Positions 2,500-64,000 of a DNA stretch of 64,000 nt are shown piece by piece. Source of the stretch: Mytilus galloprovincialis (lineage: Eukaryota > Mollusca > Bivalvia > Mytilida > Mytilidae); contig NC_134847.1 in NCBI RefSeq assembly GCF_965363235.1, positions 55,150,439 through 55,214,438 on the forward strand, written 5' to 3'. Below the pieces are notes generated by a model. The model did no database searches, had not been told where the DNA came from, and was given only the letters and a program-made list of their open reading frames with translations. The translations under genes and the position numbers were made by a program. The stretch's first letter is position 1; each line of letters opens with the position of its first letter.

Positions 2500-2696
2500 T
2501 TTTCTTGATTTACCTTCAAAGCTGACTTTCTAAAGCTATGTATAATTTATAAAGGAGAAAAGAAATTAGCCCAGTCTTTTAATTTCACCTTTCGGTATAT
2601 TGATGATGTACTGTCTCTTAATAACAATATTTTCAGTGATCACTTACATTTAATATATCCAAGTGAACTTGAAATTACATATACTTCCGACACAGA
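2500..2696 (+). pseudogene. Reverse transcriptase fragment, upstream half of an interrupted retroelement
   Basis: The plus strand reads KGEKKLAQSFNFTFRYIDDV and on to LHLIYPSELEITYTSDT. YIDD is the catalytic metal-binding box of reverse transcriptases. The surrounding 'SFNFTFRYIDDVLSL' and 'YPSELEI' strings are shared with the minus-strand copy at 17390-18090, so they are one family. The arrangement (YIDD, then FLDL-type strand, then TKLYDKRDDF) suggests a Penelope-like or non-LTR element; the class is not certain. The frame stops at an inserted 5.1 kb element and appears to resume at about 7815. No start or promoter is seen. Confidence 0.75.
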
Positions 2697-3120
2697 AGGG
2701 GCTATAAGGGGCAAAATTGGCCCCACTTCAGAATCTATTGTTATTTCTTTCAATTGATCTCTATGATATGGAGCTTATAAAACACCAAAAATTTTATAGT
2801 TATCTCTTGCGGTTTTCTTGTTATGACGTCGTAAAAATGGTAGGCCGACTAAGCTTAAATATCAGATTTTTACGTATTTTATCCTTTTTTTATGTATTGT
2901 GTACATTTTACAATAGATTACACCTTATATAATCAACATGAATACATTATTACTAGTGAACCATTGTATTAATACAATGAAGAACAATATTGATCTAAAG
3001 TTTAACTATTTAATATCAATAAAATAGTTGCTATGGTAACAACAAGTTAACATTCGTTCTATGTATGACCAAATTATAGAAATTTTTCACCAGAGAAAAT
3101 CTACAGTTATTGTTTGTATA

Positions 3121-7814: not shown

Positions 7815-8290
7815 AAATTTAGCCTTTTTCTAGAAATGACTACTGATGGTAGGTAAAGTACCAAAATTTATGATAAACGCGATGATTTTAATTATCCTAT
7901 AGTCAACTTTCCATTTCTGTGTAATAACATCCCAGCGGCACTAGCATATGGAGTATATGTGTCTCAATGGATACGCTACTCTAGAGCTAGCTCAAAGTAC
8001 GCTGATTTTGTTGAACGAGGAATACTGCTTTCTCAAAAGTGGCTAAGACAGGGCTATGAATCAATCAAATTAAGGTCATCAATCAAGAAATTTTACGGTC
8101 GCCATCAGAAGCTGATTGGTCATTTTGACAAAAGTGTATCAGAAATCATGTCTGATATTCTTCCTCAGTCATAATAACCTTCCATCATTACCGAACTGAA
8201 CAAAGAAATAACACGACGGGTGCCGTATACAGTGCAGGAATTACCCTTCCGGAGCACCTGGTTTCACTCCCGGATTTTATTGGAGTTCGT
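7815..8290 (+). pseudogene. Reverse transcriptase, downstream half, with the element's 3' tail
   Basis: After the inserted element the frame reads LFLEMTTDGR, then YDKRDDFNYPIVNFPF and YGVYVSQWIRYSRASSKYAD, and ends KSVSEIMSDILPQS at a TAA near 8174. The same conserved strings occur at 15960-16640 and 17390-18090. The sequence after the stop (about 8175-8290, with TACCCTTCCGGAGCACCTGG) matches, inverted, the tail at 15960-16245, so it is the element's own 3' end. One in-frame stop (after TTDGR) and the large insertion show that it is dead. It is Penelope-like or non-LTR; the class is uncertain. Confidence 0.78.
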
Positions 8291-9350: not shown

Positions 9351-9480
9351 GATTATTACATGACATTTTTCATATCGCATGTATAATCAGCCCCAGGTTC
9401 AATATCAGCCCAAGAGCCGCATGGCTCGAGGGCTGATATTGACCGAGGACTGATAATACATGTGATGAAAAATGACATGT
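9351..9480. repeat. Imperfect palindrome, fold-back element
   Basis: TTCAATATCAGCCC and GGGCTGATATTGA form inverted arms around AGAGCCGCATGGCTCG. The match continues outward with ACATGACATTTTTCAT against ATGAAAAATGACATGT. A second piece at about 9960-10015 shares CATTTCATATCAGCCCA and GCATGTGATAA, so the whole stretch 9351-10015 may be one older element. It is non-coding. Confidence 0.7.
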
Positions 9481-11662
9481 TATGATCTTTATATCATATG
9501 CTTCAACAATGGAGGAAAATAACAGATTCATATATTGATCCTTTAACGTGGTTCCCAAATAGAAGTTTTTAAGAGTGAAAAGTTCACGGACGTCGGATTC
9601 CAAATTTAATACATTCGATATGAAATCTTTCTATCATATGCCTCAACAGAGAAGAAAAACATTTTAATATGACGAAACGACAAAACATAATTCAAGAATT
9701 ATTATATACATAATGAACACTGTTTGGAAAAGTCAACTTTTTTTTAAAGTAACTTTCTAAATTATGTTTTAAACTTTTAAAAGATGCATTTATTTAATAA
9801 TTTGATTGTTTTTTTTTCTATTTTACAAAATACACTTTCCAGTATCCAAATAATTGTATTGTACACTCCTTTGTGATGTTTTTTTTAGTGAAAACGTAGC
9901 ATTGAGGTGTATTTTCCGGAATTTGCCGAGTATCACCGGAATGCCATTCGATATCGTTACGGAAAGGCATGTGATAACACTCGAAGCATGTGATAAACAT
10001 TTCATATCAGCCCACTAAGTACCAATTCGAAAAATATTGAATTGACGTTAATTTAATGCTATTATTATACAGTAAAAATCATATGTTATTTAGTCTAAGT
10101 ATATGATAAACAAAGTTATATTATGTATGACTGTATTTGATATAGAAAGATATTACTAATCCGACATTATTTTTCGTTAAAAAATTTGAAATAAGACTTA
10201 AAATGTTTTAATTCCAAAATACAAAAAAGACATTTTTATACACATAACACTGATAATGTTGAAGGAAATGCATACATGGAATCTATATATCCTTAGAAAT
10301 ACAGACACTTTACAAAAATTCTTGTTTTTGCATTGAAAACGACACTTTGAGTCTAAATTCATTTGTTTATGTTCGGTTTTTTTCGAGAGCAGTCCGGGCT
10401 TTTTCGAGTGTGTACAATTTTTTTTTCGAGTGATTATACAAATTGTCTATAGTTAAAAATGATATATGCCAGTGTATTTACGATAAAAAAAAATAAACAA
10501 AGATTCAAATTCAATACTTTTCCAAGAAGGAACCAATGCATCAGTTTGATAATGGTGTTCTAACACTTACATGTTATAAACATTCGTTCATTTGTATATA
10601 TGTTGCTGTTTGTCATATTTTTTTTAACTTTCATGTACAGTACATATTAGTGGTGACAACAATATAATCTACGCATAAATAATTTGGATTGAGACGTACA
10701 TACAGATATTTGTATTCCTGGTGAGCTATTCATTTCATTGTTTACTATGTATAAAATATAATTCAAATGTTTTTGTCAATTAGAATATTTGTATTCCTGA
10801 TGAGCTATTCATATCATGGTTTATTATGTATAAAATCTAATTCAAATATTTTGTCAATTGGAATAAAAATCGAGCGGATTAATTGTGTCTGTGTCAGTGT
10901 TAAAAAAAATATTCATGTTTTTTTGTGTCGGGGCGGGGGGCAGGCCTCCATTAGGAGAATGTGTTTTATTACATAGCATTTTGCTGATTCTTCTTTGCTG
11001 TCCAGTACTGAGGTTTCTTACTCCGTCGCATGATACACCTGTCACGTTTTCAAAGTTCATTTCTCTTCTGCATGGTTGTGTCTTATTATCTATTTCTTGC
11101 ATGAATATTAATTTCTCGTATCATCATTACACAGAGTGTGATATGAAAATACATGTACGAAAATCTGCGTTAATTTGATCTGCTGGTTTCACCACACAAC
11201 CAACTACTCCCTTCAATGAAGTAAAAGTAGCCCTACTCTGACACAAAATAGTGGTTTTGATGTCCTTGTTTACTTAAACTATCCAACAAATTTTCAAAAC
11301 TCAAACTTTTGGTGAAAGAGAAATATGTTTATATCATTTTGAGCCAAAATTTACTTGTCTATGAGTTAGAATTAAAAATTAAGGATTTTTGCGCTCCAAG
11401 GTATACTAATTAAAGATTTCGAGAAAACAAGGGGGTTATTTTTGGAGAACCTCTATTCGACGGACATTTTTTTTCTAAGAAGGCTTTAAGGTTATTGGCA
11501 TGTAGAAAAATGATACATGTACAGGATATACCTGGATTCTAGGAAGATAAACGTAGGGTAAGATATTTAGAAAGCTGTTAAAATTGCAAAATTTGGAAGA
11601 ACAGACAGGGAATTTTAATTTGTGGTCTGACACCTTATACAACATCATTAATTCAGACGATG

Positions 11663-12047
11663 CGTACTAAATTATCACCCTGGTACCTTTGATAACTATT
11701 CACACCACTGGGTCGATGCCACTGCTGGTGGACGTTTCGTCCCCGAGGTTATCACCAGCCCAGTAGTCAACACTTCGGTGTTGACATGAATGCCAATAAT
11801 GTGGTCATTTTATATGCTGTTTACAACTTTGAATTTTTCGAACAAATAATGCCTTTCTTATCCCAGACATAGATTACATTAGCCGTATTTGGCACGACTT
11901 TTTGGAATTTAGGATCCTCTATGCTCTTAAACTTTGTACTTGTTTGGCTTTATAAATATTTGATTTGAGCGTCACTGATGAGTCTTATGTAAACGAAACG
12001 CGCGTCTGGCGTACTAAATTATAACCCTGTTACCTTTGATAACTATT
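11663..12047 (+). mobile_element. Hammerhead-bearing short retroelement, one full unit plus the start of the next
   Basis: The block begins GCGTACTAAATTATCACCCT with CTGGTACCTTTGATAACTAT. It runs about 344 bp to a hammerhead motif and then restarts with GCGTACTAAATTATAACCCT and TTACCTTTGATAACTATT. That is one monomer followed by the first 40 bases of a second, joined exactly at the predicted ribozyme cleavage point (after 12006). It contains a GTAGTCAACACTTCGGTGTT hairpin at about 11762-11785. No protein is encoded. Such monomer-plus-part layouts fit ribozyme-processed RNA that is copied back into DNA. Confidence 0.78.
11969..12014 (+). ncRNA. Hammerhead ribozyme, type I, slightly decayed
   Basis: The core parts appear in order: stem I strand GCGTCA, core CTGATGA (11975-11981), stem II strand GTC, loop, AAC, core GAAA (11995-11998), a very short stem III in CGCGCG, cleavage triplet GTC (12004-12006), and stem I return strand TGGCGT. 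Stem I pairs over six positions with two G-U pairs. Stem II is weakened because the usual GAC is AAC. The family normally self-cleaves after GTC. Activity of this copy is doubtful. Confidence 0.8.
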
Positions 12048-12208
12048 TACGGCATTTTCACTGGCTATTCGTTAGATCATTGATGACCGTCAAAGGTTAC
12101 GACAATATTCATTTTGTGTGCAAAATGCTTGAACAACGATTCTCGTAATTTTTAGTTTAACGCAATGGAAGTGTTGGCCGTATTTAGACAACCAGGTTTA
12201 ATAACTTG

Positions 12209-15959: not shown

Positions 15960-16640
15960 TCTCATAAGAAGTCGAAACTTGTTTTAGAATCGAAATTAAA
16001 CTGAGAACGCCATGGCTAAAAATGAAAAAAGACAAACTGACAAAAATTAGTTCACATGACACAACACAGAAAACTAAAGCATAAGCAACGCGAACCCCAC
16101 CAAAAACCAGGGGAGAACAGGTGTTTCGGAAGAGTAAGCAGATCCTGCTCCACATGTGGCATCAGTCGTGTTGCTTATGTGATAACAAATGCGGTAAATA
16201 GTCTAATTCGGTAGTTCACATTCATGAAAGGGAAGGGGATTGTTACGACGTAAGGAACATATCCGATATAATTTGTGAAACGGTTATTCCATAATGGTCA
16301 ACCAACTGGTAATGGCGTCCGTAAAATTTACGAAGGAATAATTTCAACTTCACCATTTGGAACTCTTGGTTTAATAGCTTCTTTGTGAGCAGCAACCCTC
16401 TATCAAGAAAATCATGATAGGAAATGCAAACACGGAAATATCGTATCAATTGGAAGATATATGACCCGTATGCAGGTGCTGCTGGAATGTTGCTACTTAG
16501 AAATGGAAAGTTCACAAATGGAAAGCTGAAATTATCTCTTTCGTCGTAAAGTTTTGTTTTCAACCGACCCTCATTGTCAATTTCTAGATGTCAGTCAAGA
16601 TATGAGGTCGACTTAACTGTATCTGTATTATACTTTAACA
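15960..16640 (-). pseudogene. Reverse transcriptase 3' end and tail of the same retroelement family, minus copy
   Basis: The minus strand carries HLEIDNEGRLKTKLYDERDN, then FSFPFVNFPFLSSNIPAAPA, RKFYGRHYQLVDHYGITVSQ and a stop near 16246. The rest down to about 15960 is the untranslated tail shared with 8175-8290 (GTTCGCGTTGCTTATGC side). The catalytic YIDD part is missing, so the copy is 5'-truncated, which is usual for retrotransposed copies. One stop lies within the SYLD-HLEID stretch. It is non-functional. Confidence 0.75.
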
Positions 16641-17389: not shown

Positions 17390-18090
17390 ACACGGATATT
17401 CCATAACTGTCAACCAACTCGTGATGGCGTCCTTAAAAGTTTCGAAGGGATGATTTCAACTTCACTATTTGGAATTCTTGGTTTAATATTTTCCACCAGC
17501 AACCCTCTTTCAATGAAATTTTAATAAGAAAATATAGGCCGGGGAATATCGTATCAATTGGGAGATATATACTCCGCTACTAGTATGTTGCTACATATAA
17601 ATGGAAAGTTCACAAATGGGAAGCTGAAATCATCTCGTTTATCGTGAAGTTTTGTTTTCAACCGACACTCATTGTCAATTTCTAGATGTAAGTCAAGATA
17701 GGAGGCAAATTTGACTGTATCTGTTGTATCCTTTATATCTAGTTCAATGTGATAGATGCGTTCAACAGTCACCAATTCTGAATTATATAGTGACAGAACA
17801 TCATCTATATAACGGAAAGTAAAGTTAAAGGATATTGCTTACTTCTTATCTTTCTTCCTAAGAAGTTATTGTATGAAGTCAGTCTCATAATAATAATGGA
17901 ACAAGTCGGCAAGTGGAGGGTTACAATTGGTTCCAAGAGGAATGACGATAGTAAAAATGTTGTCAATCAAGAAATCAAGCATCTTATAATGTCAGTTTCA
18001 TAGCATTTTTGGTTTGAATCAGAGTTATTCTTTATAAAGTAAGATTTATCCGAATCTAAAGCAAGATACTTGTTTCTACGTTGGTCATTT
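17390..18090 (-). pseudogene. Reverse transcriptase fragment of the same retroelement family
   Basis: Reading the minus strand gives DQRRNKYLALDSDKSYFIKN, then FLIDNIFTIVIPLGTNCNPP, then SFNFTFRYIDDVLSLYNS with the YIDD catalytic box, then YHIELDIKDTTDTVKFASYL. Past FICSN the frame slips and continues near the 3' side. This copy extends further upstream than the others and gives the best view of the family: P-GTN-C-P..AD before YIDD replaces the usual RT motif. In-frame stops (after DFIQ and DKK) and a frameshift make it a relic. It lies in the intron between Ig7 and the first lectin exon. Confidence 0.78.
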
Positions 18091-23129: not shown

Positions 23130-23330
23130 TCATTGATACCAGTATTGGAATTTCGTATATACGTCAGACGCGTGTTTCATCTTCAAAGACTCAACAGTAA
23201 CGCTCTAAAAAAATGTGAAAAAGGCCAAATAAAGTACGAAGTTGAAGAGCATTGAGTACCGAAAATTCCTAAAAGTTGTTGCCAAATACAGCTATGGTAA
23301 TCTTTTCCTGAGGGTAATGAAAATTTGAAT
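23130..23330 (-). mobile_element. Decayed hammerhead-bearing repeat, minus copy
   Basis: On the minus strand a worn hammerhead lies at about 23159-23204: stem I GCGTTA, core CTGTTGA (one change from CTGATGA), AGTC, then GATGAAACACGCGTC and TGACGT. Before it comes the body seen in other copies (GCTCTTCAACTTCGTACTTT, and GTATTTGGCAACAAC). The core change should abolish cleavage. It sits in the intron between Ig5 and Ig6, in the gene's sense orientation. Confidence 0.65.
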
Positions 23331-28041: not shown

Positions 28042-28352
28042 CTACAAAGGGAATTAAAATACAAATGTAAATTAAAGAAAAATATTATTTATTACTATCA
28101 TAACGTGTATTATATCTTGTTATTGTCATTAATGTGATAATCATTGTTTTGTATTTAACATTAAATTTTGGTTTGTTGAAAAAAACAAAGGCAATCTGTA
28201 TTTCAGTGTTTTGATATATGAGAACGTTTAAACTGAAATCATTGTTGGAACATTTTTTTTTAAATGCCTTAATAAACTCGAATATTAAACGAGTAACGAA
28301 AGATTGAAGAAGTTAATAAATACTACTTGGCTTTGATATGTACAAGACTTAC

Positions 28353-28670
28353 ATTTGATGACATCAACCCTGGATCCATTACTTATTCCCTTGCCGCCAT
28401 CATTGATTGCAAAACATGCATAATAAGCGTCATCTGCTAATGATATATCATTAATGGTCAAATGTGGATATTCCAGTGAATTGTCCACGTGATATTTGCC
28501 ATTGCTATTGGCCACAACTATTGGTACTGTTGAATAACCATCTAAAGATGTTCTTTGCCAACCAACAGTGGAGGCAGTAGGTGATGATGTGATAACGCAC
28601 TGGATTATTATCTTCGAAGTATCAACGAATGGAAACTGTATTTCTGGTGTTACAGTTACAGATGGTAATT
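28353..28670 (-). CDS. Ig domain 2 exon of the Ig-lectin gene
   Basis: This is a 318-nt phase 1-1 exon. It encodes LPSVTVTPEIQFPFVDTSK, then IIIQCVITSSPTASTVGWQR (first Cys, core Trp), LEYPHLTINDISLADDAYYA, CFAINDGGKGISNGSRVDVI. The acceptor is TTCATAG (28671-28672) and the donor is GTAAGTC (28351-28352). It resembles Ig1 in the I.IQC.(V/I).SSP..(S)..VGW and PHLTI..I...(A/D)Y.C.A.ND.G.G.SN strings. Confidence 0.93.
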
Positions 28671-29094
28671 CTATGAAAAAAATATATATTCTATACTTTT
28701 GAATCAAATTGTGGTAAATACTCTTATTTGAAGTACAATGATTAATTAAAATTGATTTTGAATTAAAAATCGGACAAAACATTTTTTAGTAGATATGAAT
28801 CTGAAATAGCAAACTGCATGTAAAATCAGTAAAAATGACCTATAAGTATCTTTAAAAATGATCTAACTTGTCTTACACATGTACGTCAATAGATACTGAT
28901 TCATTAACGTATAACCTTCATTACTTACATTAATATAATTAATTGTATTCCCTTTACATTTCAAGGAAACGATTGGTTTGTTGGAGGCATCTGCATGGAG
29001 ATCGTGTATACTTCACATATGGTGTATCAGTATGTGTGGATTTTACACGGTGGGTAGTGGTGTTACGACCCTTGGTAATAACAACACGATGTTG

Positions 29095-29420
29095 ACGAAA
29101 AATCCGAAAGGTTTCACCAGCCCAGTAGTCAACACTCCGGTGTTGACATGAATATCAATAATGTGGTCATTTTTTTTTAATTTCCTGTTTACAAAACTTT
29201 GAATTTTTCAAAACACTAAGGATTTCCTTATCTCAGACATAGATTACCTTAGCCGTATTTGGCAAAACTTTTGGAATTTTGGATCCTCAATGCTCTTCAA
29301 CCTTTTACTTGTTTGGCTTTATAAATATTTAGATATGAGCGTCACTGATGAGTCTTATATAGACGAAACGCGCGTCTGGCGTACTAAATTGTAATCCTGG
29401 TACCTTTGATAACTTTCAAA
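29095..29420 (+). mobile_element. Hammerhead-bearing short retroelement, best-preserved copy
   Basis: The body shares with 11663-12047 the strings CACCAGCCCAGTAGTCAACA, ACATAGATTACCTTAGCCGT, TTGGCTTTATAAATATTTAG, a hammerhead, and then GGCGTACTAAATTGTAATCC and TGGTACCTTTGATAACTTT. The 5' side is partial: the first 80 bases of the unit are missing or changed. It is non-coding. It sits in the intron between Ig1 and Ig2, opposite to the host gene's direction. Confidence 0.8.
29339..29384 (+). ncRNA. Hammerhead ribozyme, type I, complete core
   Basis: The parts in order are: stem I GCGTCA (29339-29344), core CTGATGA (29345-29351), stem II GTC (29352-29354), loop TTATATA, GAC (29362-29364), core GAAA (29365-29368), a minimal stem III in CGCGCG, cleavage triplet GTC (29374-29376), and stem I return TGGCGT (29377-29382). 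Stem I pairs fully, with two G-U pairs, and stem II pairs fully. All conserved core bases are present. The short stem III with GAAACGCGCGTC is like that of schistosome and other animal hammerheads. Predicted cleavage is after 29376. Activity has not been tested. Confidence 0.88.
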
Positions 29421-29624
29421 AGATGAAGGTGTTGATGATGAACGATGGAAATAAATACAGAAAAACCATTTAAAGCCAACAAGTGGTATAGACTAACTGA
29501 ATAAGGTTCATAATATTGAATACTTGATCACTGTAATATGCCACTAGTATAAATGCCACATGTTAAGATAGTCGGTAAGATACATTCGATACAAAGTGTG
29601 GTAGACGCATACAATATATATGGG

Positions 29625-29740
29625 GTCATTGAAGGCCGTACGGTGACCTATAGTTGTTAATGTCTGTGTCATTTTGGTCTTTTGTGGATAGTTGTCTCAT
29701 TGGCAATCATACCACATCTTCTTTTTTATATATCAATAAA
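29625..29740 (+). repeat. 3' fragment of the dispersed mussel-type repeat
   Basis: GAAGGCCGTACGGTGACCTA, TTGTGGATAGTTGTCTCATT and GGCAATCATACCACATCTTC match the family described at 3121-3300. Confidence 0.75.
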
Positions 29741-29810
29741 TTTGCTGACACATTGGAAATTAATTGACCCCATATATATATCTAACAAAAATATGAAAAA
29801 CATAACTCAC

Positions 29811-31358: not shown

Positions 31359-31402
<44 letters not shown>
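31359..31402. repeat. (AT)n microsatellite
   Basis: About 22 uninterrupted AT units lie at the tail of the adjacent SINE. Confidence 0.95.
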
Positions 31403-31403
<1 letters not shown>

Positions 31404-31709
31404 TACGTCTGAGTCAGTGACGACCCTACAACAGATGTATCCATCGGATCGCCATCAATGATGGTGATACATGGCTGTGTACATAATGTATATACAACTC
31501 GTCTAAACATCAACCCAACAATGTTAGATCTGTAAATTTGCTTTCGCAACTTTTTGGTTCTTCCCTCGCCTGGATTCGAACCCATGCTACTGTGATATCG
31601 TGACACCAAATCGCCTGCACTGCAGCCGTCCCGCTAGACCACACGACCACCTGGGCTCTCAAAAAAAGAGCTTTCGGTGGGCATGTGTTACCTTTCCACG
31701 TCAGTTTTA
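31401..31709 (-). mobile_element. tRNA-derived SINE, full minus copy
   Basis: On the minus strand this starts at the ACGTGGAAAGGTAACACATG head and passes an A-box-like TGGTCTAGCGG and a perfect B box GGTTCGAATCC. It runs through TTGTTGGGTTGATGTTTAGA to a tail CTGACTCAGACGTACTTATA that grades into (AT)n. The tRNA-like part has a long arm (GCAGGCGATTTGGTGTCACG), as in Ser- or Leu-type tRNAs. It is a different family from the SINE at 5703-6045. Confidence 0.8.
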
Positions 31710-31840
31710 ATCTAGCGGCGTACTACAGTACATGATATATAAGGCATGAAGATGTTATTGTTACAGATCAGCTAAATTATCTACAGTAAAGGATCCTACA
31801 AATTAATGTAAGATACAGTCACAGAAAATAATTATATTCA

Positions 31841-32194
31841 TAAGTACGTCTGAGTCAGTGACAACCCTACAACAGATGTATCCATCGGATCGCCATCAAT
31901 GATGTTGATACATGGCTGTGTACATAATGTATATACAACTCGTCTAAGCATCAACCCAACAATGTTAGATCTGTAAATTTGCTTAAACTGACGTGGAAAG
32001 GTAACACATGCCCACCGAAAGCTCTTTTTTGAGAGCCCAGGTGGTCGTGTGGTCTAGCGGGACGGCTGCAGTGCAGGCGATTTGGTGTCACGATATCACA
32101 GTAGCATGGGTTCGAATCCCGGCGAGGGAAGAACCAAAAATTTGCGAAAGCAAATTTACAGATCTAAGATTGTTGGGTTGATGTTTAGACGAGT

Positions 32195-32197
<3 letters not shown>
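31841..32197. mobile_element. Rearranged second copy of the same SINE (tail and head in opposite directions)
   Basis: At 31841-31984 the SINE's tail half lies on the minus strand (AAGTACGTCTGAGTCAGTGA ... GATCTGTAAATTTGCTT). At 31985-32197 its head half lies on the plus strand, with A-box-like TGGTCTAGCGG (32050-32060) and B box GGTTCGAATCC (32109-32119). The two halves overlap by some 50 bases of the SINE around GTTGGGTTGATG and meet head-on at 31984/31985. This is the form expected from an insertion whose 5' part was inverted. Confidence 0.75.

Positions 32198-32265
<68 letters not shown>
32196..32265. repeat. (TA)n microsatellite
   Basis: About 35 TA units follow the SINE head at GAGTTGTATA. 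A short open frame rich in Ile-Tyr here is an artefact of the repeat. Confidence 0.95.
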
Positions 32266-33054: not shown

Positions 33055-33345
33055 TCTTTCGTCACTTCGGTGTTAACATGTATATCTACATGTATTATAA
33101 ATCATTTTTTTTTTATAAATTAACTGTTTGTGAAAGTATGAGTAATTCTAATACTGAGGATTTTCTTATCCCAGGCAGATAACCTTAGCCGTGTTTGGCA
33201 CAACCTTTTGGAACATTTGGTCCTCGGTGCTCTTCAAGTTTGTGCTTGTTTTGGCTTTTTAACTTTTTTTTTATCTTAGCGTTACTGATGGGTCTTGTGT
33301 AGACGAAACATGCGTCTGTTGTATTTAATTATAAGCCTGATGTTT
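33055..33345 (+). mobile_element. Decayed hammerhead-bearing repeat
   Basis: The body strings TTATCCCAGGCAGATAACCT and TAGCCGTGTTTGGCACAACC are shared with the other copies. A worn hammerhead lies at about 33279-33322: CTGATGG (last core base changed), GTC, GAC, GAAACATGCGTC. Stem I pairing is lost. It is likely inactive. Confidence 0.65.
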
Positions 33346-49885: not shown

Positions 49886-50785
49886 TTAAAAACCAATTGT
49901 TTAGAGAACAATTGAAGGTCTTTCCACCAGTAAAGATCTATTTTGATATTAAAATATTAAAAATCAGTCTAAAATGTCAGCTCCTAAGGCTTTATGATGT
50001 AAACATATGAATTTAGAGCAAAGGTCAAAATCTAAAACGTCCTATTAACCTATGATCTTGACCTCAATTTCAAGGTCACAAACCAAGGACATTAAATCAA
50101 AAACCGTAGGTCCTTAATATGTATGGTTAATGAGTTATATCACTTTACGCATAATTCTAAATGTAAGAGGGGCGAAAACTCCGATTTATTGTCTACGCAC
50201 CCTTTCAACCAACATTTATAAGTAACGACATGTCACAACTAACAATTTAGTAAATATAATTTGTCGGTTTTTGAAAATAAGTCAAAATAAGTCAAAATAA
50301 AAATTTAGAATATGACCTTGACCTTTGACCTTGACCTAATTTCCTGTTTTTGGACCAAGGACCTTCAATCAAAAGACTCTAGGTCTCTATCACTTATGGT
50401 TTAACAGTTAGAAACGCATATTGTTAATATCAAATGCATAGGGGAAATAACTATCATATAGAGTCTACGGAAAGCTTCGGTCCAAATGACTATCCTAATC
50501 CTGAAGATGTAACGAGCAATATGGTAAAATGAATTTTTCGTTAACTTTTACAGTTGCGAAGGAGTAGTGTTTAGGGAGATAACTCTTCCAGCGTAAAGTA
50601 TTTGGTTACGCGGTTGTCCATTTTTAAAGCGTATAAACTATACGATAGCATATTCCAAATATCTAAGCGACATCTTATGAAACAACAAAACTACGCAAGA
50701 AAAAAATTAGGCGGAAAAAAATAATAATCAGAACAAAATCAATAGGTCTTTCCACGGAAAGTTGAAAAGACCTTATAATATGTCT
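49886..50785 (+). repeat. Diverged single copy of the 1154-bp repeat unit
   Basis: This begins ATTAAAAACCAATTGTTTAG, with the CAATTGTT/AACAATTG hairpin, and shares AGGTCTTTCCA, GGTCAAAATCTAAAACGTC, GACATGTCACAACTAACAAT and ATTAGGCGGA with the array at 61353-64000. It ends with a fold-back, AGGTCTTTCCACGGAAAGTT then GAAAAGACCTTA, which is absent from the tandem copies. It looks like the dispersed parent form of the array unit and lies in the GPCR intron. Confidence 0.75.
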
Positions 50786-57784: not shown

Positions 57785-59001
57785 CTAAAATATAAAAATG
57801 ACACAGTTATGAAAACATCTTAGATGATTGTTGTGTTCGTTCGATCCAGTACCTCACTTGTTATCATTTTCAAGGATCATACACATCAAAGTAAAATTAC
57901 AATCACTACATTTATTATTATTTTGAAGGCAAATAAAAACATGTAGTAAGTCAACATAATTATACGCGTAATAAACAATTGCTACTGAAGAAACAGTTTT
58001 ACATATATTTCGTTTTTTCCATATTCAATCTATTTTCTTATAATGTTTTATATTGTGATTCATAATATATAATTGATTCCTTGAATATATAAGTGGACGT
58101 AATGCCACTTTATGTGAACTTTTTAATGAAATCATGAAAAGATGTATCAGGGTGTATTTGTGACCAATAATAGTCAATATGACTTTAAGTTTTATAAAAT
58201 GTGAAACATAGAAAAGGTTTGAGAAATCTAGGACAAATCAAGGCATTACATGTTTTCCCTTTGCAACCCATGTATATAGCACAAATAACAATTTACAATG
58301 ACATAAAACATAGCATACAAAAACATTGTGCAAATGACGAGATAAGAGTGTTACAATTTCTGTACAAGATCGTTTAATCGGGTATCTATGATGAGTTTAT
58401 TTAGTTATAATAAATGAATAAAAGCCCGATTCAGATTACATCCTCATAGAAATTCACAATCGGAAATGGCAAAGAAAATGCATAGTCTGCGAAGTTTAAA
58501 TATCTACATCTACATCGTTATTGCCAAAATGGAAGGCGAAAATAATCGAAAAACTGATCATGCAATATGTATCAAGTAAAAAAAAACATTTAAAGCGAAC
58601 AAGAATGTAAGCATCAAACATTTCCGAAGTTTTATTAATACTATCTTTAGTTCACCAGTTTCTCCTTGAAATAATATGTTGGTTAATCTAAGAAACACTA
58701 TTTTTATTTTAACAGTAAAATCAACACTTTTAATGAATGTTAATAAATCCTTATTGTGTAACCTTATTTTTCATGCAGTTTAAAATACACTTCTTAATAA
58801 ATATTCCATATGACAAATCATCATAATTATAACTTTTGTCTTCTAATCAAATGTTTAAAGGCTTTATACCCATTTATTAGTACACACATTTATCTTTATT
58901 TGTTCATTATAGTTGAAGATTGATTATGCTATCTATATTATGTAGACTTTGTTGTGTATGATTTTTGAATAATTTCTATATTGACACAGTCAGTTACTTA
59001 C

Positions 59002-59128
59002 CTGTAAGGAGTTGAAAACTGCAAAGAGATACTGGAACACGACCGTCTCTTCGTTTATTGAAAACGCACCTAGAACCCACGTAACACCAAACAACGGTAA
59101 GATAATACACACTTTCCTAATTCCGGCT
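59002..59128 (-). CDS. Adhesion-type GPCR, TM6 to start of TM7 exon
   Basis: The 127-nt exon reads AGIRKVCIILPLFGVTWVLG, then AFSINEETVVFQYLFAVFNS and LQ. 'LPL.G.TWV.G' is the TM6 signature of class B2 adhesion receptors, and 'VFQY.F...NSLQG' is the start of TM7. The acceptor is TCTTTCCAG (59129-59130) and the donor is GTAAGTA (59000-59001). It enters in phase 2, completing a Lys codon with the exon at 60740-60840, and exits in phase 0. The family call is strong; the receptor's subgroup and ligand cannot be judged without the extracellular part. Confidence 0.93.
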
Positions 59129-59699
59129 CTGGAAAGAACAGGTTTTTTCATTTTTTTTATAAAACGTTTTATAATTCTAACTCTGGAAAGAACATGCTTT
59201 TCATTTTTTTTTTTACCTTTTTCGTTAAACTTTTTATAATTGTTAAAATCATCTCTGAGTTACTGGTGTGTTTAATGGTGACCCAGTTAAATATTAAGCA
59301 TTTCGACAAAAATATTGTTCCTATCTATTCTTAAACAAACATTTGATATAACTGGTTTAATTTCAATTTTTTTAATAACCAACGGATTCCATATGTGTGT
59401 TTGGGTTTAATGGACACAATTATTATTGTTAAATCGAGTATTTACATAGTTTTTTTCAGTTTTTATTTTCAACATATGAGTTTAATTTTCCCTGTTTGTT
59501 TCGTTCGCCTCATGATAACGAAATTGATTTTGTCAACATGGTGTATTGATGTGTACAGAAAGGCAAAAGTTTAATGGACCAATCTCATTAAAAAATTTGT
59601 AGATATGAAAATTACATAAGAATGGCCATACCATTTTATTTTTTTCAGACATTAACTTATTGTGTCAATATCGCACCCTTACTCTTTGAAGTCTGTATA

Positions 59700-61352: not shown

Positions 61353-64000
61353 AATTAAAAACCAATTGTTCAGAGAACAATTGAAGGTCTTTCCATCAAA
61401 ACAATGTATTTTGATATGAAAAGTTGTGAAACTAAGTTTAAAATGTCATTTCAATCGTCAAATGATAGCTCCTAGTAAGCTGATTCCAAAAATATATTGT
61501 TTCCATACATTTTTTTTAAATAAGGGAGATAATTTGTTACTTCCGGTTTGAAAAATGTTACTTCCGATTATATTTGAATATTTACTTGACACTGATTCCA
61601 AAAATATCTGGTTCTATATACTTTTATATTAATAAAGTACAAAAAAATAGCTATTTCCGGTTTACAAAAGGTCACTTCCGGTTGTTTTTTACAAGGTTAA
61701 ATGGTTTGATACCTTTTTCTAAAAGTTGTATATCTTTATCATGTATACATATAGAATAAAAGCAAAGGTCAAAATCTAGAACGTCAAATTAAGCTATGAC
61801 CTTGAGATCAATTTCAAGGTCGTAAACCAAGGACCTCAAATCAAAAGACCATAGGTCTTTATTATATTTAGTTAATGAGTTATATCACCAAACGCGTATT
61901 TTTAAATACAAGAGGGGAGAAAACTCCCTTTTACATTCAACGTACGCTTGCAATCAAAATTTACATCTTACGACATGTCGCAACTAACAATTTAGTAAAA
62001 ATAATTTGTTGATATCTTATACAGTCTTTGGATATAAGTGAAAATAAGCCAAATTCAAATATTAGAATATGACCTTGACCTTTGACCTTGACCTAATTTT
62101 CATTTTTTGGGACCAAGGACCTCAAATCAAAAGATCCTAGGTCTCTATCACTTATGATTTATAAGATAGAAATTCATATCACTTATATCAGATGCATAAG
62201 GGGAAATAACTCTCATATGGAGCGGTCATATCGCTTCGGTCAAAATAGGACAAATCATGCGAAGGATATAACGAGCAATTTTGTAAAATAAATTTGTCAT
62301 AATCTTTTACGTTTGCGAAGGAGATGCGCTAACAAGGAAAACAGTGTTTGGGGAGATAACTCCTACAAAGAAAAGTATTCGTTTACGCAGGGTAAATTTC
62401 AAAAGCGCATAAACTGTTCGATATCATATACCAAATATCTAAGCGACATATTGCGAAACAAATGTTTATCGCAAGAACAAAATTAGGCGGAAGAAAAAAA
62501 AAAAAAAATTAAAAACCAATTGTTCAGAGAACAATTGAAGGTCTTTCCATCAAAACAATGTATTTTGATATGAAAAGTTGTGAAACTAAGTTTAAAATGT
62601 CATTTCAATCGTCAAATGATAGCTCCTAGTAAGCTGATTCCAAAAATATATTGTTTCCATACATTTTTTTTAAATAAGGGAGATAATTTGTTACTTCCGG
62701 TTTGAAAAATGTTACTTCCGATTATATTTGAATATTTACTTGACACTAATTCCAAAAATATCTGGTTCTATATACTTTTATATTAATAAAGTACAAAAAA
62801 ATAGCTACTTCCGGTTTACAAAAGGTCACTTCCGGTTGTTTTTTTCAAGGTTAAATGGTTTGATACCTTTTTCTAAAAGTTGTATATCTTTATCATGTAT
62901 ACATATAGAATAAAAGCAAAGGTCAAAATCTAGAACGCCAAATTAAGCTATGACCTTGAGATCAATTTCAAGGTCATAAACCAAGGACCTCAAATCAAAA
63001 GACCATAGGTCTTAATTATATTTAGTTAATGAGTTATATCACCAAACTCGTATTTTTAAATACAAGAGGGGAGAAAACTCCCTTTTACATTCAACGTACG
63101 CTTGCAATCAAAATTTACATCTTACGACATGTCGCAACTAACAATTTAGTAAAAATAATTTGTTGATATCTTATACAGTCTTTGGATATAAGTGAAAATA
63201 AGCCAAATTCAAATATTAGAATATGACCTTGACCTTTGACCTTGACCTAATTTTCATTTTTTGGGACCAAGGACCTCAAATCAAAAGATCCTAGGTCTCT
63301 ATCACTTATGATTTATAAGATAGAAATTCATATCACTTATATCAGATGCATAAGGGGAAATAACTCTCATATGGAGCGGTCATATCGCTTCGGTCAAAAT
63401 AGGACAAATCATGCGAAGGATATAACGAGCAATTTTGTAAAATAAATTTGTCATAATCTTTTACGTTTGCGAAGGAGATGCGCTAACAAGGAAAACAGTG
63501 TTTGGGGAGATAACTCCTACAAAGAAAAGTATTCGTTTACGCAGGGTAAATTTCAAAAGCGCATAAACTGTTCGATATCATATACCAAATATCTAAGCGA
63601 CATATTGCGAAACAAATGTTTATCGCAAGAACAAAATTAGGCGGAAGAAAAAAAAAAAAAAATTAAAAACCAATTGTTCAGAGAACAATTGAAGGTCTTT
63701 CCATCAAAACAATGTATTTTGATATGAAAAGTTGTGAAACTAAGTTTAAAATGTCATTTCAATCGTCAAATGATAGCTCCTAGTAAGCTGATTCCAAAAA
63801 TATATTGTTTCCATACATTTTTTTTAAATAAGGGAGATAATTTGTTACTTCCGGTTTGAAAAATGTTACTTCCGATTATATTTGAATATTTACTTGACAC
63901 TAATTCCAAAAATATCTGGTTCTATATACTTTTATATTAATAAAGTACAAAAAAATAGCTACTTCCGGTTTACAAAAGGTCACTTCCGGTTGTTTTTTTC
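61353..64000 (+). repeat. Tandem array of a 1154-bp unit, cut by the window edge
   Basis: Units start at 61353, 62507 and 63661 with AATTAAAAACCAATTGTTCA. The first two are complete and differ at only about ten positions by eye. The third is cut after about 340 bp and looks identical to the second. Each unit opens with a CAATTGTTC/GAACAATTG hairpin, contains three CTTCCGGTT motifs and a cluster of AGGTCA half-sites, and closes with GGCGGAAG and an A-run. Short open frames inside are repeats of the same non-coding sequence. It lies in the GPCR intron. Confidence 0.95.

What the first reader, a model, noticed from the sequence alone, without database searches (positions are those of the whole stretch)
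29095..29420. Complete hammerhead ribozyme in a short interspersed repeat
The plus strand at 29339-29384 has every conserved hammerhead base in order (CTGATGA, GAAA, GTC) and pairing stems I and II. The minimal stem III (GAAAC then GCGCGTC) is like the schistosome satellite hammerhead. The repeat is non-coding and present in at least four copies in this window. Hammerheads are known in Penelope-like elements and in short bivalve elements that make circular RNAs. This copy looks capable of cleavage and sits antisense in the first Ig-Ig intron of a host gene.
Basis: partly seen in the sequence, partly recalled or inferred. Interest (0 to 1): 0.88.

Follow-up and report, generated by a model that had tools for sequence, protein, structure and literature searches.

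The report
Truncated hammerhead retrozyme copy in intron
A short, non-coding jumping element carrying a self-cutting RNA (a hammerhead ribozyme) sits backwards in an intron of a gene for an immunoglobulin-domain protein; it fits the description of an element family already published from mussels, so it is real but essentially ordinary.

Summary
Rfam's type I hammerhead model hits 29339-29382 (+) just above its cut-off (34.5 against 34 bits, E 7.6e-5). A strict descriptor finds this one site in the window and 2 sites in 300 shuffles. Predicted cleavage is after 29376. The repeat (about 29109-29418) has three relatives in the window: 11.66-12.05 kb, 33.06-33.34 kb, and 23.13-23.32 kb on the minus strand. 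Only the focal ribozyme is intact.

The one near-full copy here has a 347-bp period. I could not confirm the species or compare letters with the published repeat.

Corrections: the focal copy is 5'-truncated with a single hammerhead, so it cannot release a circle by itself. Energy folding favours competing structures. It lies antisense in a 1.14-kb intron, so host pre-mRNA carries no ribozyme.

Possible additions, all weak: similar 3' ends in 3 of 4 copies, one 5' end within 3 nt of the cleavage point, and a B-box-like site.

The parts
29109..29418 (+). focal retrozyme-like repeat copy, 5'-truncated, one hammerhead near its 3' end
   Evidence: BLASTN to the copy at 11746-12044, 87% over 308 columns; ends by local alignment; alignment A1
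29339..29382 (+). type I hammerhead ribozyme; predicted cleavage after C29376
   Evidence: Rfam RF00163, 34.5 bits, E 7.6e-5; strict descriptor
29128..29147 (+). perfect 8-bp hairpin with UNCG-type tetraloop (TCCG here, TTCG in the 11.7-kb copy)
   Evidence: letters; the tetraloop class name is recalled
29377..29418 (+). 3' tail beyond the cleavage site; begins with TGGCGTACTAA (A-box-like, 1 mismatch, a quality that is common by chance)
   Evidence: letters; the same word scored at 12007, where 1471 sites of that quality lie on the two strands of the window
11662..12050 (+). about 1.1-unit copy: 42-nt terminal direct repeat (11662-11703 and 12009-12050), 347-bp period; 5' end within 3 nt of the cleavage-site equivalent
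11969..12012 (+). hammerhead of that copy, stem II mismatch, below the Rfam cut-off (30.6 bits)
11710..11720 (+). B-box-like GGGTCGATGCC (1 mismatch to the Pol III B box as recalled)
   Evidence: 62 of 3000 shuffles of the unit hold as good a site
33063..33339 (+). diverged copy, 74% identical; core CTGATGG (broken)
23130..23322 (-). diverged, 5'-truncated copy, 76% identical; core CTGTTGA (broken)
28671..29810 (-). host intron (GTGAGT...CATAG) between two immunoglobulin-domain exons; holds the focal copy antisense
   Evidence: splice sites read by eye; Pfam Ig matches on both flanking ORFs (the one at 28285-28785 is below Pfam's curated cut-off)

Best explanation
The feature is a degraded genomic copy of a metazoan non-LTR retrozyme: a non-coding, non-autonomous retroelement of about 350 bp carrying one type I hammerhead per unit, of the kind described in Mytilus galloprovincialis. 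[quoted passage not shown] Those steps are taken from the literature and not shown here. This copy landed by such an event with its 5' end missing; it keeps one intact hammerhead but can at most make a single cut in an antisense transcript. It is most likely a passive passenger in the intron (inference).
For: Rfam type I hammerhead hit above the cut-off. Chance of such a site is low (2 sites in 300 shuffles). Four dispersed copies in 64 kb in which body and ribozyme region align together. No long open frame. 347-bp period and 35-40% GC, against published mussel repeats of about 350-390 bp and metazoan retrozyme GC below 45% or 50% (figure legend; text). The 1.1-unit copy hints at tandem origin. 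The paper reports about 5000 such hammerheads in M. galloprovincialis, cleavage at about 0.1 per min, and circular RNAs.
Against: Species not verified: no genome is held for the window. No complete tandem pair exists in this window. No clear target-site duplication at any of four copies. Energy folding disfavours the ribozyme fold in this copy. The 347-bp period is slightly below the published 350-390.
Confidence: 0.9

Rival explanations
1. The intronic hammerhead has been co-opted by the host gene, as proposed for intronic hammerheads of amniotes and of schistosome mucin genes, and cuts a nascent transcript to affect splicing.
For: Intronic type I hammerheads are in print for RECK and other amniote genes (passages of PMC6155905) and for S. 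mansoni mucin genes (passages of PMC2576457). The ribozyme is intact here, unlike in the other three copies.
Against: The ribozyme is on the strand opposite to the Ig exons, so host pre-mRNA does not contain it. The three relatives in the window are damaged, which fits neutral copies.
Confidence: 0.03
2. It is part of a Penelope-like element (terminal repeat with hammerhead) and not a separate retrozyme.
For: Penelope-like elements carry type I hammerheads, and ORF fragments with a YIDD reverse-transcriptase-like motif lie elsewhere in the window (by eye; the assignment to Penelope-like elements is recalled).
Against: Penelope hammerheads are described as usually minimal, lacking helix III (passage). 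Here a short stem III is present. The nearest fragment that I recognised by eye (7857-8174) lies about 3.5 kb from a copy. The four fragments had no Pfam match at E 0.01, and the one tested had no PDB match, so their identity is itself unproven.
Confidence: 0.04
3. A Pol III-driven SINE that carries a hammerhead, like the schistosome hammerhead repeats with A and B boxes, and mobilised as a linear RNA cut at its 5' end only, not as a circle.
For: B-box-like site GGGTCGATGCC at 11710 (62 of 3000 shuffles of the unit hold one as good). TGGCGTACTAA follows the cleavage site in both better copies. The 3' ends of 3 of 4 copies lie roughly 33-44 nt past the cleavage site (the fourth at about 23), and the one long copy begins within 3 nt of the cleavage-site equivalent. 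Schistosome hammerhead repeats have Pol III boxes (passage).
Against: A joint A-plus-B test on the 11.7-kb unit failed (no A box with 1 mismatch or fewer 35-65 nt upstream of the B-box-like site), while 14 of 3000 shuffles passed it. A-box words of 1 mismatch are common (1471 in the window, both strands). A review states that retrozymes seem to lack promoters (passage of PMC7761336). Only one copy reaches the 5' region.
Confidence: 0.15

Closest known systems
Mytilus galloprovincialis non-LTR retrozyme (Cervera and de la Pena 2020, PMC7229834; parts 1-3 of 6 and Discussion read)
   Same: type I hammerhead, non-coding, low GC, unit near 350 bp, many copies
   Different: this copy is single-unit, 5'-truncated and intronic; letters not compared, species not verified
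Schistosoma hammerhead repeats (passages of PMC2576457; satellite paper not held)
   Same: the stretch GACGAAACGCGCGUC equals the Rfam consensus line (its schistosome source is recalled); intronic copies known there; Pol III boxes there
   Different: the body sequence was not compared; only a weak B-box-like site here
Newt and axolotl satellite-type retrozymes (PMC7229834)
   Same: type I hammerhead in a repeat unit of about 330-350 bp
   Different: tandem arrays; ribozymes act better as dimers; one of two axolotl families has a stem III of a single pair
Penelope-like element hammerheads (passages)
   Same: type I hammerhead in a retroelement
   Different: usually minimal without helix III, and tied to an autonomous element

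Membership tests
Type I hammerhead ribozyme (RF00163) | covariance-model score above the gathering score | tested here: met
   34.5 against 34 bits; margin small
Type I hammerhead ribozyme (RF00163) | all catalytic-core residues and three stems, open at stem I | tested here: met
Type I hammerhead ribozyme (RF00163) | self-cleavage of the RNA | not testable with these tools
   energy gap of 3.7-8.3 kcal/mol against the hammerhead fold leaves it open
Metazoan non-LTR retrozyme | non-coding dispersed repeat of about 150-450 bp with a type I hammerhead and low GC | tested here: met
   definition
Metazoan non-LTR retrozyme | tandem arrangement, dimers to multimers | tested here: inconclusive
   1 of 4 copies is 1.1 units long; the other 3 are partial single units
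Metazoan non-LTR retrozyme | linear and circular RNAs of unit size | not testable with these tools
   no RNA data held
Metazoan non-LTR retrozyme | target-site duplication (when present, longer than 4 bp) | tested here: inconclusive
   longest shared flank words 6, 6, 7 and 8 nt; matched or beaten by 1033, 833, 469 and 125 of 2000 random pairs
M. galloprovincialis retrozyme | sequence match to the published repeat | not tested
   supplement not available; species of window unknown
Penelope-like element | linked reverse-transcriptase open reading frame | tested here: inconclusive
   no RT-like ORF recognised by eye next to a copy; four RT-like fragments elsewhere had no Pfam match

The most novel reading that the evidence does not exclude
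These retrozymes carry their own internal Pol III-type promoter straddling the ribozyme cleavage site and move as a linear RNA whose 5' end is made by ribozyme cleavage and whose 3' end is fixed about 35-45 nt past the next hammerhead, so that the circular RNA is a by-product and not the transposition template.
Probability: 0.12. Interest if true: 0.55.

Novelty: already known. Interest (0 to 1): 0.22.

Why it matters
The copy adds little that is new, since the element kind, its ribozyme activity and its circular RNAs are published. Its use is as a fossil. The end-points of dispersed copies (5' end near the cleavage point in one, similar 3' ends in three of four) bear on an open question, namely whether retrozymes re-enter the genome from the circle or from a linear cut RNA. 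A genome-wide survey of copy ends would test this directly.

Tried and rejected
Related copies outside the window: patterns from the repeat gave 0 matches in viral contigs (4 scans) and 0 in genome contigs (2 scans). A distant blastn of 29100-29415 against 50,697 phage records gave none. These collections hold no animal genomes as such, so this says little. No host genome is held. So the comparison rests on four copies in one window.

Literature: six exact stretches of the repeat were found in no held paper. The schistosome satellite paper (PMC108972) is not held.

tRNA-derived SINE: ARAGORN finds no tRNA (bacterial settings), no Rfam tRNA match appears up to E 10, and the joint A-box plus B-box test on the 11.7-kb unit failed. 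Only a B-box-like site remains (62 of 3000 shuffles hold one).

Host-gene co-option was rejected as the leading reading because of the antisense strand. Target-site duplications were sought at all four copies and not found above chance; the best is 8 nt at the 23-kb copy, 125 of 2000 random pairs as good.

Full report
Observation. The window holds a type I hammerhead at 29339-29382 on the plus strand. It is the only match at gathering level among 4227 Rfam families (34.5 bits, cut-off 34, E 7.6e-5), and the alignment shows the core residues in order. A strict descriptor (CTGANGA, paired stem II, GAA, stem III opening with A and closing with U-H, five paired stem I positions) finds this site only, on either strand; 300 dinucleotide shuffles of the window gave 2 sites altogether.

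The repeat. BLASTN of 29080-29459 against the window finds three relatives: 11746-12044 (87%), 33063-33339 (74%) and 23322-23130 on the minus strand (76%). It also gives a short hit at 11662-11702, which is the leading partial unit of the first relative. Over the hammerhead the focal and 11.7-kb copies share 42 of 44 positions, and over two body segments 106 of 120 (with 9 gapped columns) and 72 of 80 (1 gapped). Only the focal ribozyme is intact. The 11.7-kb copy has a stem II mismatch (30.6 bits, below the cut-off), and the 33-kb and 23-kb copies have CTGATGG and CTGTTGA in the core. The focal stretch has 4-10 stop codons in each of six frames.

Anatomy. The 11.7-kb copy is about 1.1 units long. 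A 42-nt direct repeat (11662-11703 and 12009-12050) brackets it with a period of 347 bp. Its 5' edge falls at position +3 after the cleavage-site equivalent, and its 3' edge at +44. The focal copy begins inside the unit (29109) and ends at about +38 to +42. By BLAST limits, the 23-kb copy ends at about +33 and the 33-kb copy at about +23 (converted through the query); the ends of these two diverged copies are uncertain. So 3 of 4 copies have a similar 3' end and 3 of 4 lack the 5' part; the sample is four. Both better copies carry a perfect 8-bp hairpin with a TTCG or TCCG loop (29128-29147 and 11766-11785). No copy has a convincing target-site duplication.

Will it cut? By energy rules the hammerhead fold of the focal copy lies 3.7 kcal/mol above the free ensemble in isolation and 5.9-8.3 with 10-80 nt of flanks; for the 11.7-kb copy the gap is 5.9-6.8. 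In the focal copy a competing hairpin pairs AUAUGAG with CUUAUAU across the core. The Rfam consensus sequence itself does not have the hammerhead as its energy minimum, and tertiary contacts are not modelled, so activity remains open. The published mussel hammerheads lack most of the conserved loop-loop nucleotides, and a cloned one still cut at about 0.1 per min.

Host context. Seven ORFs with immunoglobulin-domain matches lie on the minus strand between 30159 and 20233 (Pfam; six pass a curated cut-off, the one at 28285-28785 has E 8.9e-6 but 26.6 of 30 bits). Mutual tblastn among them finds no further one in the window at E 0.05. The focal copy lies within the intron 28671-29810 (GTGAGT donor, CATAG acceptor, read by eye) between the first two of them, on the opposite strand. 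Host pre-mRNA thus carries the reverse complement, on which Rfam finds no ribozyme.

What it is. The text of PMC7229834 (parts 1-3 of 6 and the Discussion read) describes metazoan non-LTR retrozymes: non-coding repeats with type I hammerheads, self-cleaving, circularised most likely by host RNA ligases, and expressed as circles. It reports about 5000 copies of a type I hammerhead in M. galloprovincialis, usually in repeats of about 350-390 bp. The present repeat fits on ribozyme type, unit size, and GC (35-40%).

How it likely works. Shown here: a hammerhead near the 3' end of a dispersed repeat without long open frames, and a damaged ribozyme in three of four copies. From the literature: cleavage, ligation and circular RNA. 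Inferred: re-entry by a reverse transcriptase supplied in trans.

A bolder reading. A B-box-like GGGTCGATGCC lies at 11710 (62 of 3000 shuffles of the unit hold one as good), and TGGCGTACTAA follows the cleavage site. Against it: A-box words of that quality are common (1471 in the window on both strands), and a joint A plus B test failed on the unit while 14 of 3000 shuffles passed it. A 2020 review says retrozymes seem to lack promoters (passage of PMC7761336), whereas schistosome hammerhead repeats have Pol III boxes (passage of PMC2576457). Together with the end-points, this leaves room for a SINE-like life cycle through a linear RNA. I give it about one in eight.

Searches behind the novelty call. 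Paper searches: hammerhead ribozyme + Mytilus + circRNA (2 papers); with SINE + bivalve (3); retrozyme + polymerase III + promoter (1); retrozyme (34, listing only); hammerhead + schistosom + polymerase III + satellite (4); hammerhead + mussel (14, listing only). I saw no held paper on a promoter in mussel retrozymes in these listings; most of the listed papers were not opened.

Noticed in passing
61353-64000: A near-identical tandem duplication with an offset of 1154 bp (99.5% over 1494 bp), related to 49990-50727 (77%).
   Followed up: no
31392-32205: A direct pair (96.7%) and an inverted pair (97.7%) of short repeats with perfect tRNA-like A and B boxes (TGGTCTAGCGG, GGTTCGAATCC) on opposite strands, probably young tRNA-derived SINEs.
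   Followed up: no
2509-2757 (+), 7857-8174 (+), 16243-16590 (-), 17554-17838 (-): ORF fragments that look like one retroelement family; those at 2509 and 17554 read YIDDVLSL, like a reverse transcriptase, and the regions near 7.8, 16.3 and 17.5 kb are 70-80% alike in DNA. No Pfam match; the one tested had no PDB match.
   Followed up: partly
9384-9456 (-): A long hairpin that weakly resembles a microRNA precursor family (33.2 bits, cut-off 90); more likely a palindromic repeat.
   Followed up: no
29629-29739: A 110-bp repeat beside the focal copy, in the same intron, with relatives at 3107, 5520, 14171 and 39840; another dispersed element.
   Followed up: no
58990-59259 (-): Exon-like ORF with a secretin-family 7-transmembrane segment (Pfam PF00002, E 3.5e-8).
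   Followed up: no
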